A DNA stretch of 64,000 nt from Clostridia bacterium (GTDB lineage: Bacteria; Bacillota; Clostridia; Oscillospirales; Acutalibacteraceae): NCBI GenBank assembly GCA_017618135.1, contig JAFZUV010000017.1:1-64000 (forward strand), given 5' to 3'. The notes under the pieces are model-generated. The model searched no databases. It had not been told where the DNA came from and saw only the letters and a list, made by a program, of their open reading frames with translations. This document shows, piece after piece, positions 15,371 through 62,562 of the stretch. The position numbers were made by a program, and so were the translations under genes. Positions within the stretch are counted from its first letter, which is position 1. The number at the start of each line of letters is the position of its first letter.

Positions 15371-15418
15371 ATCTGTTATCTGATATCTGCCGTCTGCTGT
15401 CTGACATCTGACATCTGT
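15370..15418 (+). repeat. YRTCTGN heptamer repeat, seven contiguous units
   Basis: The longest array of the family: seven uninterrupted heptamers, TATCTGT, TATCTGA, TATCTGC, CGTCTGC, TGTCTGA, CATCTGA, CATCTGT, in perfect seven-base phase over 49 bases. It lies between the terminator and the 3' end of the 6S RNA, so it would be part of the 6S primary transcript. Confidence 0.85.
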
Positions 15419-15613
15419 CTTGTCCCGCCCTGCCGTAGCGGCTAAAGATAACCTGATTTAATTCAGGTGGGTACAAGCCGGACAGCTTCGTGCTCCCTTC
15501 TTCCGTAATCGGCACAGCCGCGGGAGGTCTGCAAGCCCACTGTCCGAGCAACAGTCCCTTTTAATACAATTGTAGGGTTATAAAAGCGCGGTTCGCGAAC
15601 AGCGCAGGACATG
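15415..15613 (-). ncRNA. ssrS: 6S RNA
   Basis: Read on the minus strand, this ~195-nt RNA has 6S architecture. The closing stem pairs UGUCCUGCGCUGUU (5', complement of 15598-15611) with GGCAGGGCGGGACA (3', complement of 15421-15434), 13 of 14 positions. UGUUCGC follows, as in E. coli 6S. The terminal stem pairs complements of 15540-15546 and 15479-15485 (CGGACAG/CUGUCCG). A small hairpin (complement of 15451-15468, ACCUGA/UCAGGU) sits on the 3' side of the central bubble, as in E. coli. 6S RNA binds sigma-A RNA polymerase and dampens transcription in slow growth. The exact ends are estimates. The TACCAT just upstream of the 5' end may be its -10 box. Confidence 0.82.
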
Positions 15614-16035: not shown

Positions 16036-16195
16036 TTCGTTGCCTCCGTGAACTTTTTGCATTATTATTTTAACAAAAAGCATAAAAATAGTCAATAGCA
16101 CAGAAAAAACAAAAAAAGGAAATTGCTGCAAACCCCCGCGTTAAGGGCGTTACGGCACTTTTTATAAAATTTTTACAAAAATTATTAACTTTTGC

Positions 16196-16224
16196 TTGAC
16201 AAATTAGTTATTATGCAGTATAAT
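16196..16224 (+). promoter_or_regulatory. Consensus sigma-A promoter of the small transcript
   Basis: Perfect TTGACA (16196-16201), 17-base spacer, perfect TATAAT (16219-16224), preceded by A/T-rich sequence resembling an UP element. This is the strongest-looking promoter in the window, and no long gene follows it. Confidence 0.9.
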
Positions 16225-16250
16225 AAACGCAGAAAGAAAGAGGCGACCGG

Positions 16251-16301
16251 ATGAAGGAATGGATAGAAAGCCTTGAATTTCGAAAAAAGCGAAAGAGGTG
16301 A
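16251..16301 (+). CDS. Micro-ORF 1 of the repeat transcript (16 aa)
   Basis: The frame reads MKEWIESLEFRKKRKR, with AAGAGG seven to eight bases upstream of the ATG. It contains the heptamer A AAA AAG in frame (16283-16289), the classical bacterial -1 slippery site. A -1 shift there would replace the last residues by AKEVSPKNS and end at 16318, giving the same kind of tail as micro-ORFs 2 and 3. Translation and shifting are both unproven. Confidence 0.3.
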   Translation: MKEWIESLEFRKKRKR

Positions 16302-16326
16302 GTCCAAAGAACAGTTAAGTTTTTAC

Positions 16327-16368
16327 TTGAAGCGAAAATTTATGAAGGTGAGTCCGATGTACAATTAG
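16327..16368 (+). CDS. Micro-ORF 2 of the repeat transcript
   Basis: From a TTG at 16327 the frame reads MKRKFMKVSPMYN; an ATG at 16342 would give only MKVSPMYN, and an upstream TTG at 16273 would give 31 residues. No strong ribosome site marks any of the three. The tail KVSPMYN is almost identical to that of micro-ORF 3. Confidence 0.25.
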   Translation: MKRKFMKVSPMYN

Positions 16369-16405
16369 AAAATACCACAAAGCGAATTTTTAAGAGGCGA
16401 TAAAT

Positions 16406-16465
16406 ATGTTGATTTTTAGAACCCCAAAAAAATTCAATAATAAGGTGAATCCGATGTACAATTAA
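16406..16465 (+). CDS. Micro-ORF 3 of the repeat transcript (19 aa)
   Basis: The frame reads MLIFRTPKKFNNKVNPMYN, with AAGAGGCGA five bases before the ATG, the same ribosome-site sequence as micro-ORF 1. The peptide is basic with a hydrophobic start. The shared site and the shared tail argue that these repeats are under coding or RNA-structure constraint. Confidence 0.3.
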   Translation: MLIFRTPKKFNNKVNPMYN

Positions 16466-16470
16466 TATAA

Positions 16471-16500
16471 GGCCTCGCGGCAATGCCGCGAGGCCTTTTT
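16471..16500 (+). terminator. Intrinsic terminator of the small transcript
   Basis: GGCCTCGCGGC and GCCGCGAGGCC arms (16471-16495) followed immediately by TTTTT. It is a very stable GC-rich hairpin. Confidence 0.9.
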
Positions 16501-16518
16501 ATGTATATTCGGTTTGTG

Positions 16519-16556
16519 TTTCCCGTCAACTTATAAAGAGCATAAGTTGACGGGAA
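16519..16556. repeat. Intergenic palindrome, second copy of the CGTCAACTTAT family
   Basis: TTTCCCGTCAACTTAT, a short centre, then ATAAGTTGACGGGAAA. The core CGTCAACTTAT/ATAAGTTGACG is shared with the palindrome at 11017-11050. It lies between the convergent small transcript and spoVT and may mark the end of spoVT transcripts. Confidence 0.6.
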
Positions 16557-16562
16557 ATCATT

Positions 16563-17096
16563 TTATTCGGTCTGATTGCCTAAAAACTTTGCAGCCACGC
16601 CGGCAAGCTTTATATCGCTTTCAAACGGACGAACCGCCTTATCGTTTCTTAAGAACACAACGGAGCCGGTAATGTCGCCCGCCGAGATTATCGGAACGGC
16701 TATGCATATTTCATAATCGGCGCCTTGAAGGGCGTAGACAGTTTCGTTCGTTTCGCATATTCTGGTTTTGCGCTCCTCACAGATATTTTCAAGCTCGCGG
16801 CTCACCGCGCGGTCAATAACATCCTTTTTAGAAACTCCCGCCGCCGCAATACAGTGGTCACGGTCACATATAATAACCGAAAGGTTGGTACTGCCGGACA
16901 GCGCGTCCGCATATTCCGCCGCGAAGGTGGAAAGCTCGCCCATAGGTGAGTATTTCTTAAATACTACCTCTCCGCCCGTGCCGGTGTAAATTTCAAGAGG
17001 GTCGCCTTCCCTGATACGCATAGTGCGGCGAATTTCTTTGGGTATTACCACGCGACCCAAGTCGTCAATTCTTCTTACAATTCCTGTGGCTTTCAT
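16563..17096 (-). CDS. spoVT: Stage V sporulation protein T
   Basis: SpoVT is an AbrB-type transcription factor controlling late forespore genes. The 177 residues start with the SpoVT-AbrB swapped-hairpin DNA-binding domain (MKATGIVRRIDDLGRVVIPK through about residue 47), followed by a GAF-like sensor domain (about 55-175). The length matches SpoVT rather than the shorter AbrB. A good ribosome site (aaggagattt) precedes the ATG. Its presence indicates an endospore-forming lineage. Confidence 0.95.
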   Translation of the reverse strand: MKATGIVRRIDDLGRVVIPKEIRRTMRIREGDPLEIYTGTGGEVVFKKYSPMGELSTFAAEYADALSGSTNLSVIICDRDHCIAAAGVSKKDVIDRAVSRELENICEERKTRICETNETVYALQGADYEICIAVPIISAGDITGSVVFLRNDKAVRPFESDIKLAGVAAKFLGNQTE

Positions 17097-20218: not shown

Positions 20219-20486
20219 TAATTAAAGGCAGTGACCAAGAGAAGTAACCGTTTTTACGGCGCAAAGTGAGCGGGGGACAGTGAGAACCCTGCCGCACGGA
20301 TACGGTGAATAACACTTGAAAGCCGCAATCCGAAAAAGAATAGCTTTAGTAGGTGCGCCGGGCTCGTCCCGTTACAGGCGATAGCAGTTTAGGCTGTAAG
20401 AGTGGCCAAATAGGCAAGTCGGGTGGCACCGCGAATAGAAATTTAACGCTATTCGTCCTGATAACAGGGCGAATAGCGATTTTTTG
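20219..20486 (+). promoter_or_regulatory. T-box riboswitch, asparagine-specific
   Basis: The leader senses uncharged tRNA and lets transcription proceed when the amino acid is scarce. The T-box sequence GGGTGGCACCGCG is at 20421-20433. The terminator hairpin CGCTATTCG...CGAATAGCG (20447-20479) is followed by ATTTTTT, and the antiterminator is formed by GCGAATAG pairing with CTATTCG. The K-turn/AG-bulge region and Stem I precede it. An AAC triplet at 20311-20313 in the Stem I specifier-loop position matches asparagine, in agreement with the downstream asnS and asnA. Confidence 0.93.
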
Positions 20487-26471: not shown

Positions 26472-26741
26472 GCACGCAATGGGAAAATTGCGTAAACATG
26501 CGTTGATGCGGGAGGTGGCCGACTGCCGGGTCGGGAAATTTCCGCGGAGTATGTCCGATTTTAAACCGGGCGAAAGTATTTGGAGGCGTTTCGGTACTTG
26601 CGAACCGATTGCGCCGCGGCGGAGCGATCCGCTGCTCCGGATTTGCTGTGACCCCAGCAATTACCGGTATTTATATTGTGCCAAGCGTGAACGCACGGCA
26701 CGGTGTAAGTTTTGCCCACCAACTTAAAGGAGGGATTTCAC
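26472..26741 (+). promoter_or_regulatory. Long GC-rich 5' leader of rpsJ
   Basis: About 270 bases lie between the promoter and the rpsJ start. The segment is richer in G/C than the surrounding intergenic DNA and holds several short complementary stretches, for example GACTGCCGGGTCGG and CGCGGCGGAGCGATCCGC. A frame of 96 codons is open through it but has no ribosome site or protein-like composition. Ribosomal operons of Firmicutes often carry regulatory leaders, usually binding L4, S8 or similar proteins; which one would act here cannot be told by reading. Confidence 0.5.
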
Positions 26742-62462: not shown

Positions 62463-62562
62463 AACAGAGTAGATGCCGTCGCGTAAAGTGCCGTGGGGAC
62501 GGGGAGTTGCCTTGCGGACGAAGCGAAGTGTTCGCGCGGTGGCGGCATTGCATCCCGCTGGC
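62463..62562 (+). promoter_or_regulatory. THF (tetrahydrofolate) riboswitch
   Basis: The aptamer carries the class signature: GAGTAGATGCC with GCGTAAAGTGCC in the first half, and GCGCGGTGGCGGCATTGCATCCCGC in the second, pairing GATGCC with GGCATT and forming the three-way fold. It senses reduced folates and lowers expression of folate uptake genes. It lies directly upstream of folT-folC, as known for this class. Confidence 0.92.

What the first reader, a model, noticed from the sequence alone, without database searches (positions are those of the whole stretch)
16196..16500. Strongly promoted ~270-nt transcript with three repeats ending in micro-ORF tails VxPxxx
Seen: a perfect sigma-A promoter, a strong terminator and no long ORF, but three copies of a ~21-base repeat. 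Each copy, in its own frame, encodes a V(S/N)P tail then stop: VSPKNS, VSPMYN, VNPMYN. Two of the frames begin with ATG after the same ribosome site AAGAGGCGA. Repetition of both the translation start signal and the peptide tail points to a tiny-peptide family or a repeat-based RNA. I know no matching RNA or peptide family. Inference: an undescribed signal-peptide array, toxin-like peptides, or an sRNA with repeated binding sites.
Basis: partly seen in the sequence, partly recalled or inferred. Interest (0 to 1): 0.78.

Follow-up and report, generated by a model that had tools for sequence, protein, structure and literature searches.

The report
Tandem mini-ORF RNA gene of Clostridia
A short, strongly promoted gene in gut Clostridia appears to make an RNA that is a row of ribosome landing sites, most followed almost at once by a stop codon; it is kept across relatives, matches no RNA family in the library searched, and its function is unknown.

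Summary
Window 16196-16500 is a free-standing unit: 12/12 promoter and 13-bp terminator, purine-rich, no ORF above 31 aa on its strand, no Rfam match. It is near-universal in its genus: 60 of 70 genomes at E<=2.3e-12, 38 of 39 good ones (34 training genomes included). Related elements occur in other families and in three genomes outside the order. The repeat is not a V(S/N)P peptide tail but a ribosome-start module, GGUGA-NNCC-R-AUG, with a stop after 2-3 codons in 84 of 109 AUG copies. Five 16S-tail-complementary sites lie 46-58 nt apart in the window RNA; none of 500 shuffles has five. In relatives, longer micro-ORFs show synonymous change. In other groups the last stop codon overlaps the terminator stem in 40 of 40 distinct elements. 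Downstream genes are not conserved, so it is no leader of one gene. Most likely it works by engaging ribosomes; expression, translation and function are inferred. Against a pure ORF reading: AAG replaces AUG in 18 of 127 copies.

The parts
16176..16195 (+). AT-rich, partly palindromic block just upstream of the -35 box (genus consensus nAAAAGTTATnAACTTTTnC)
   Evidence: alignment A6 of 34 loci; role as UP element or operator is inference
16196..16224 (+). sigma-A type promoter TTGACA-17-TATAAT
   Evidence: 12 of 12 consensus matches; both boxes invariant in 34 aligned genus loci, which had however been chosen by a promoter pattern
16238..16301 (+). ribosome site AAGAGGCGA + ORF1, ATG 16251, 16 aa MKEWIESLEFRKKRKR; at the place of the PP peptide ORF of most relatives
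   Evidence: sequence; 16S-tail-complementary site at 16235/16236; relatives
16297..16318 (+). repeat copy 1, GGTGAGTCC-A-AAG-AAC-AGT-TAA: start module with AAG in place of ATG; strongest 16S-tail complementarity of the RNA (-17.1 kcal/mol)
16347..16368 (+). repeat copy 2, GGTGAGTCC-G-ATG-TAC-AAT-TAG: mini-ORF MYN
16392..16465 (+). ribosome site AAGAGGCGA + ORF4, ATG 16406, 19 aa MLIFRTPKKFNNKVNPMYN, reading in frame through copy 3; at the place of the 9-aa K-ended ORF of relatives (homology by position, inferred)
   Evidence: sequence; relatives
16444..16465 (+). repeat copy 3, GGTGAATCC-G-ATG-TAC-AAT-TAA: mini-ORF MYN ending 3 nt before the terminator stem
16469..16500 (+). intrinsic terminator, 13-bp stem and T tract
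   Evidence: two-sided changes in 4 of its 10 consensus pairs among 6 close relatives

Best explanation
A core, independently transcribed RNA gene. Its transcript is a purine-rich array of ribosome-binding sites at ~50-nt pitch with little conserved structure besides the terminator. Most sites open a minimal ORF (AUG, 1-2 more codons, stop); in relatives one or two open a conserved micro-ORF of about 9-13 codons. I think it works by being loaded with ribosomes: 30S subunits bind the strong SD modules, start, stop almost at once and are kept nearby. The product would then be the ribosome-covered RNA itself: a stable RNA that takes up or reports translation capacity, with the micropeptides as a by-product or second output. 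Shown: anatomy, conservation, spacing, early in-frame stops, synonymous change in the longer micro-ORFs. Inferred: expression, translation, and any effect on the ribosome pool.
For: Conservation: 60 of 70 genus genomes at E<=2.3e-12, one such place each, 38 of 39 good genomes (34 of the 60 trained the model, so 26 of the 36 others). Early stops: in-frame stop within 4 codons in 78% of 109 AUG copies against 39% and 17% in the other two frames. Spacing of successive copies: 75 spacings, none below 46 nt; 33 at 46-58, 25 at 95-123, 10 at 143-172, 7 elsewhere. 16S-tail-complementary sites: 4.38 per 275 nt against 1.22 in shuffles; 78 of 176 spacings are 46-60 nt (44%) against 13% in shuffles; window 5 sites against 1.35, 0 of 500 shuffles reach 5. 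Copies pair with the tail at least as well as gene SDs at the median (-11.2 kcal/mol for AUG copies against -9.8 for 47 gene proxies, each taken at its best start; some genes are stronger, down to -19.0). Micro-ORFs change synonymously: second Pro codon CCG12/CCA10/CCT18/CCC3 in 43 of 52 loci (PP was a search criterion); Lys5 AAG34/AAA6 in 40 of 40 last ORFs. In the window's clade 1 of 25 consensus pairs outside the terminator has a two-sided change. No conserved downstream gene. Precedent in passages of PMC8708949: with a strong SD before a minigene the ribosome restarts without leaving, and ribosomes bound at a mini-ORF can protect a transcript.
Against: 18 of 127 copies carry AAG, not a known start codon, where AUG is expected; in the family search 10 genomes carry AAG in an otherwise exact copy and none carries ACG or AGG, so AAG looks selected and translation does not explain it. 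CC at -3,-2 is kept by eye even when SD spacing changes, and no initiation rule known to me explains it. Passages of PMC8708949 report that two-codon minigenes with a strong SD are the most toxic to the cell, so a strongly expressed array should be costly. Conservation of nonapeptide and PP residues suggests that peptide sequence matters too. Many other-group elements have a long variable middle with few modules, and 22 of 44 carry a covarying hairpin, which a pure ribosome array does not need. By the energy measure 38 of 176 site spacings are below 46 nt. The single-sequence fold of the window transcript is more stable than all 200 shuffles (z -3.5). The 16S tail was recalled, not read: no 16S gene is in this assembly. 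No expression data.
Confidence: 0.42

Rival explanations
1. It is a messenger for micropeptides. The real products are the 9-aa K-ended peptide (MLD[INT]K..[QE]K in other groups, MIVRK..IK in the genus) and the 10-14-aa PP peptide; the minimal ORFs only load ribosomes and protect the RNA.
For: Synonymous third-position change with constant residues; the shortest element read, L123, has only MYR and MIEPKNSEK before its terminator; K-ended last ORFs are found outside the order too (MSEPKNEQK from TTG, MTLDIKSEQK; read by eye).
Against: The window's own clade has neither peptide in canonical form; PP, Leu2 and Asp3 were partly selected by my search patterns; most cistrons are 2-3 codons, too short for a functional peptide; the K-ended ORF was not found in 25 of 52 genus loci by my pattern.
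Confidence: 0.25
2. It is a sponge. The repeat GGUGANNCCRAWG is a binding site for an RNA-binding protein or a C-rich small RNA; resemblance to start sites is how the partner is titrated away from real mRNAs.
For: AAG copies keep the motif without a start codon; CC is kept next to the AWG whatever the SD spacing (by eye); repeated sites in an RNA with little conserved structure.
Against: Early in-frame stops and a copy spacing never below 46 nt are not needed for a sponge. In the own genome the pattern (both strands, <=3 mismatches) occurs outside the element only twice, in what look like coding stretches, so no set of target mRNAs and no complementary small RNA was found at this stringency.
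Confidence: 0.17
3. It is a decoy for the 16S rRNA 3' end: 30S subunits are held by extended complementarity (up to 14 predicted pairs) without starting translation, much as 6S RNA holds RNA polymerase.
For: First copies in 32 aligned elements pair with the recalled 16S tail at median -14.3 kcal/mol, best -19.2; AAG copies in the genus have median -12.3, the window AAG copy -17.1.
Against: 84 of 109 AUG copies end in a stop after 2-3 codons; micro-ORFs change synonymously. In one group a UCCGACC stretch that could pair with 16S pairs inside the RNA in the predicted consensus fold.
Confidence: 0.1
4. It is a cis-acting leader or attenuator: translation of the last ORF opens the terminator and lets polymerase into a downstream gene.
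For: The last stop codon overlaps the terminator stem in 40 of 40 distinct other-group elements, wholly inside it in 38; mini-ORFs in leaders are known regulators (PMC8708949 passages).
Against: Downstream genes are on either strand (19 of 50 co-directional in the genus; 29 of 45 in other groups) and of many kinds (largest downstream cluster 4 of 50); in the window the next ORF is convergent.
Confidence: 0.04

Closest known systems
Regulatory minigenes and two-codon mini-ORFs (axe-txe, LEE1/LEE4 leaders, B. subtilis ycbK: passages of PMC8708949; lambda bar minigenes recalled)
   Same: SD followed by AUG, one to a few codons and a stop; reported effects include restarting ribosomes and transcript protection.
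   Different: In those passages they sit in or before a gene that they control in cis; here several in a row form a free-standing unit with its own terminator and no conserved downstream gene.
Stab-SD type 5' stabilisers of Bacillus mRNAs (recalled; search listing only)
   Same: A strong SD-like sequence close to the predicted 5' end of the RNA.
   Different: Repeated along the RNA at ~50-nt pitch, with mini-ORFs and no long coding region.
6S RNA (RF00013)
   Same: A free-standing RNA gene; by analogy a mimic of a landing site (promoter there, start sites here). A 6S gene lies within about 1.3 kb of the element in the window and in 4 of 18 related loci scanned.
   Different: The element does not match the 6S model; the window's 6S is a separate gene at 15418-15613, minus strand.
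Dual-function small RNAs (RNAIII/hld, SR1/SR1P, SgrS/SgrT; recalled)
   Same: Own promoter and terminator, small ORF inside.
   Different: No single small protein but a series of ORFs, most of them 2-3 codons; no conserved target-pairing stretch identified.

Membership tests
Any described Rfam family | covariance-model score above the family's gathering score | tested here: not met
   window: 5 matches, none at the element; below threshold, lowest E-value at 16100-16560 is 0.047; 18 related loci: only RNase P, 6S and tRNA, none at the element
Regulatory minigene | SD + start codon + very few codons + stop | tested here: met
   84 of 109 AUG copies have 2 or 3 codons; the 18 AAG copies lack a known start codon
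Regulatory minigene | lies in the leader of a gene that it controls in cis | tested here: not met
   no conserved or consistently co-directional downstream gene
Regulatory minigene | is translated | not testable with these tools
   needs ribosome profiling or reporter fusions; early-stop and codon statistics are indirect
6S RNA | match to RF00013 | tested here: not met
   the window's 6S match is 15418-15613, minus strand, not the element
Leader-peptide attenuator | conserved regulated gene downstream, same strand | tested here: not met
Dual-function small RNA | own promoter and terminator | tested here: met
   by sequence only
Dual-function small RNA | one small-protein ORF plus a conserved base-pairing region | tested here: inconclusive
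   longest ORF on the strand 31 aa from a TTG, 19 aa from an ATG; target pairing not searched beyond
Type I toxin peptide | short hydrophobic, membrane-seeking peptide (recalled definition) | tested here: inconclusive
   by reading, most encoded peptides are charged (MKEWIESLEFRKKRKR, MLDIKSEQK, MIVRKPLIK); a few are partly hydrophobic (L020 MIAFIFKFKNKF)
Stab-SD stabiliser | binding of 30S near the 5' end lengthens RNA half-life | not testable with these tools
   SD-like sites lie near the predicted 5' end in the 32 aligned elements; half-life cannot be measured here

The most novel reading that the evidence does not exclude
A new kind of bacterial RNA gene, present in at least two orders of Clostridia, whose conserved content is an array of translation start sites: a translated, nearly protein-free RNA that acts on or senses the ribosome pool, as 6S RNA does for RNA polymerase.
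Probability: 0.4. Interest if true: 0.87.

Novelty: categorically new. Interest (0 to 1): 0.75.

Why it matters
A gene found in 38 of 39 good genomes of its genus, in several families of a major gut order and in a few genomes outside it, which no family of Rfam 15 covers and whose ORFs are too short for ordinary gene calling, would be missing from the parts list of common gut bacteria. If the ribosome reading is right, bacteria keep a dedicated RNA that engages ribosomes on ORFs too short to make protein, which makes the role of minimal ORFs in translation control testable in cultured species such as Oscillibacter valericigenes and Merdimmobilis hominis.

Tried and rejected
Known RNA: Rfam at gathering and relaxed thresholds gave nothing at the element. 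Leader of spoVT or another gene: rejected by neighbours. V(S/N)P peptide family: rejected; the tails follow from the start-module sequence. Phage origin: one exact pattern scan of the viral contigs (AAGGGTGAGTCCRATGTACA, the other-group form, not the window's) found nothing; weak evidence. Prevalence in the order by model R1: 365 of 395 genomes had a match at E<=0.01, but the listed hits near 1e-5 mostly cover only the promoter half of the model, so I count only the 49 of 395 at E<=1e-7 (training sequences included); not all 49 were read. Of the 30 loci fetched there and scanned by script, 17 did not meet my anchor pattern; of the 13 that did, 11 show an ORF ending at a terminator, one terminator pick was wrong (L250, whose last ORF is seen as L239) and one is unclear (L274). 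Conserved fold of one other group: 12 of 93 pairs with a two-sided change but an unfavourable covariation term, not claimed.

Paper searches, judged from listings, showed no description of such an element in the open-access library; of papers I saw passages of one, PMC8708949.

Dropped rows and circularity: one search gave 61 loci, one search kept the 52 with a promoter matching TTGACA. PP was a search criterion (9 of 52 loci lack it). Leu2 and Asp3 were forced by the pattern, and its stem search looked only from 12 nt before to 30 nt after the stop; 47 rows gave 40 distinct last ORFs; two of the 40 stop codons overlap the stem only partly. Hairpins were picked for the loop and at least 3 pairs, so leans to pairing; the rows are not all distinct, and recounts 22 of 44 distinct elements (0 of 44 for the reversed sequences). 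Alignment A1 held one wrongly oriented row and was replaced by A2. Of the 35 family genomes at least one hit (L095) lies in coding-looking DNA; they were not all read. L290, a second hit in G916, was not seen: one search printed the wrong stretch.

Full report
WHAT IS THERE. The reported stretch is a compact transcription unit by sequence. A 12-of-12 promoter lies at 16196-16224 and a 13-bp terminator at 16469-16497. The longest ORF on this strand inside the unit is 31 aa from a TTG and 19 aa from an ATG. The unit is rich in purines (0.64; 8 of 1276 window tiles reach this on either strand). Three repeat copies are at 16295-16317, 16345-16367 and 16442-16464. GGTGARTCC occurs in the window only here (3 matches; shuffle mean 0.40; 1 of 100 shuffles has 3). 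In the own genome the 17-mer GGTGAGTCCRATGTACA with up to 3 mismatches has five hits, three of them these copies; the other two lie in what look like coding stretches. No Rfam family matches.

HOW CONSERVED. DNA search: 36 of 70 genomes of the genus. Pattern with up to 2 mismatches: 55 of 70 genomes, against 7 hits in all for the reversed pattern. A sequence-only model of the first 155 positions (34 training loci): 60 of 70 genomes at E<=2.3e-12, one such place each, 38 of 39 good genomes, and 26 of the 36 genomes outside the training set. In the family, 35 of 300 sampled genomes, of 23 of 135 genera, hold the pattern with at most 1 mismatch, reversed control 0. In the order, 17 of 245 genomes hold a longer pattern, control 0, and a model of the promoter plus first module hits 49 of 395 genomes at E<=1e-7, in nine families (training sequences included, weaker hits not counted). 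In the class, 6 of 293 genomes at E<=1e-7, three of them outside the order: two show the whole anatomy by eye (L286, L287), the third two start modules (L288). That scan also returned records of unrelated phyla (Streptomyces, Mycobacterium and others); in the 80 loci most of these hold a single copy and no promoter by my pattern, and I treat them as chance.

ANATOMY IN RELATIVES. In the genus the usual order is: promoter; ORF1 at about +24 to +30 (for example MKELTPPERFLK; 10-14 aa in most); a module at about +84 (often AUG AAG UAA); one or more further modules; ORF4 with SD GGTGA (9 aa, for example MIVRKPLIK); a module about 48 nt after its start. The window's clade (L003-L008) lacks the PP peptide; most of its members have AAG modules early in the RNA instead. 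In other genera and families the RNA starts with a module a few bases after the predicted start (AGAAAGGGUGAGUCCAAUGUACARGUAA and the like), has a middle of variable length, and ends in a K-ended ORF such as MLDIKSEQK. In 40 distinct last ORFs of this form the stop codon overlaps the 5' arm of the terminator stem in all 40 and lies wholly inside it in 38. I treat these as one family because the promoter-module junction, internal modules in several of them and the K-ended ORF agree; homology of the last ORFs is inference.

WHY START SITES. Of 127 module copies in 52 genus loci, 109 have AUG and 18 AAG. In frame, 84 of 109 have exactly 2 or 3 codons; a stop comes within 4 codons in 78%, against 39% and 17% in the other frames. 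Successive copies are never closer than 46 nt in 75 spacings. Sites complementary to the 16S tail number 4.38 per 275 nt against 1.22 in dinucleotide shuffles, and 78 of their 176 spacings are 46-60 nt (44%, shuffles 13%); 38 of the 176 are below 46 nt. The window RNA has five sites (16236, 16294, 16344, 16390, 16441); no shuffle of 500 has five. The tail sequence was recalled: this assembly has no 16S gene. The longer micro-ORFs look translated: the second Pro of ORF1 uses four codons in 43 loci, Val3 of ORF4 four codons in 14 of 27 and Arg4 AGA9/AGG8 in 17 of 27 nine-codon ORFs, Lys5 of the last ORF AAG34/AAA6.

WHY NOT A LEADER. Upstream ORFs are mostly divergent (42 of 52; four of the rest look like antisense readings of one gene) and fall in a few clusters; downstream ORFs are of many kinds and on either strand (19 of 50 co-directional; 29 of 45 in other groups).

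MECHANISM. Evenly spaced, strong start signals with near-immediate stops suggest an RNA built to be occupied by ribosomes. Passages of PMC8708949 report that a strong SD before a minigene lets the ribosome restart without leaving, and that ribosomes bound at a mini-ORF can protect a transcript; I extend this, by inference, to an array. The same passages report that such minigenes are toxic when overexpressed, which counts against a strongly expressed array. What the cell gains is unknown: a sink or gauge of translation capacity is my first guess (0.42), a micropeptide messenger second (0.25), a sponge third (0.17).

WHAT DOES NOT FIT. AAG stands for AUG in 18 of 127 genus copies and in 10 genomes of the family search, where no C or G was seen at that base. 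CC next to the start codon looks constant even where the SD has moved. A covarying hairpin YCYC-RCUUAY-GRGR occurs in 22 of 44 distinct other-group elements, 0 of 44 in reversed controls. The single-sequence fold of the window RNA is more stable than 200 of 200 shuffles. These may point to a bound factor or to structure that I have not resolved.

NOVELTY. No Rfam match, nothing in the paper listings searched, and the minigenes in the passages read act in cis on a gene. I rate it categorically new, with the caution that no expression or function is shown and that most subscription journals were not searched.

Noticed in passing
window 15418-15613 (-); L086 46-246, L092 96-288, L168 585-781, L188 7474-7669: A 6S RNA gene lies near the element in the window and in 4 of 18 related loci scanned; in many genus loci the upstream neighbour differs, so the link is not universal.
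   Followed up: partly
L280, L281 (one genome, G738), L282, L284, L219: Several whole copies of the element in tandem, or on both strands, in one genome.
   Followed up: partly
L114, L124, L138, L149, L178 and others, mostly 71-104 nt before the last ORF: Hairpin YCYC-RCUUAY-GRGR with two-sided changes in all 5 pairs of 13 distinct sequences; 22 of 44 distinct elements, 0 of 44 reversed controls; not seen in the window element.
   Followed up: partly
L127, L107: A single GGAGGTGAGTCCAATGTACA(A/G)TTAA mini-ORF directly before a terminator-like hairpin and ahead of another gene, a different setting, perhaps phage-like.
   Followed up: no
L106, L148, L162, L172: Single modules a short way upstream of longer genes, as if used as minimal upstream ORFs.
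   Followed up: no
window 16518-16558: 17-pair inverted repeat between the element and the convergent ORF at 16563-17096, perhaps a terminator of one or both.
   Followed up: no
window 20222-20463, 62463-62562, 26495-26573: T-box leader, THF riboswitch and S10-Clostridia leader by Rfam.
   Followed up: no
genus loci, directly upstream of the -35 box: Near-palindrome AAAAGTT-ATn-AACTTTT in the consensus before TTGACA; UP element or operator unknown.
   Followed up: no
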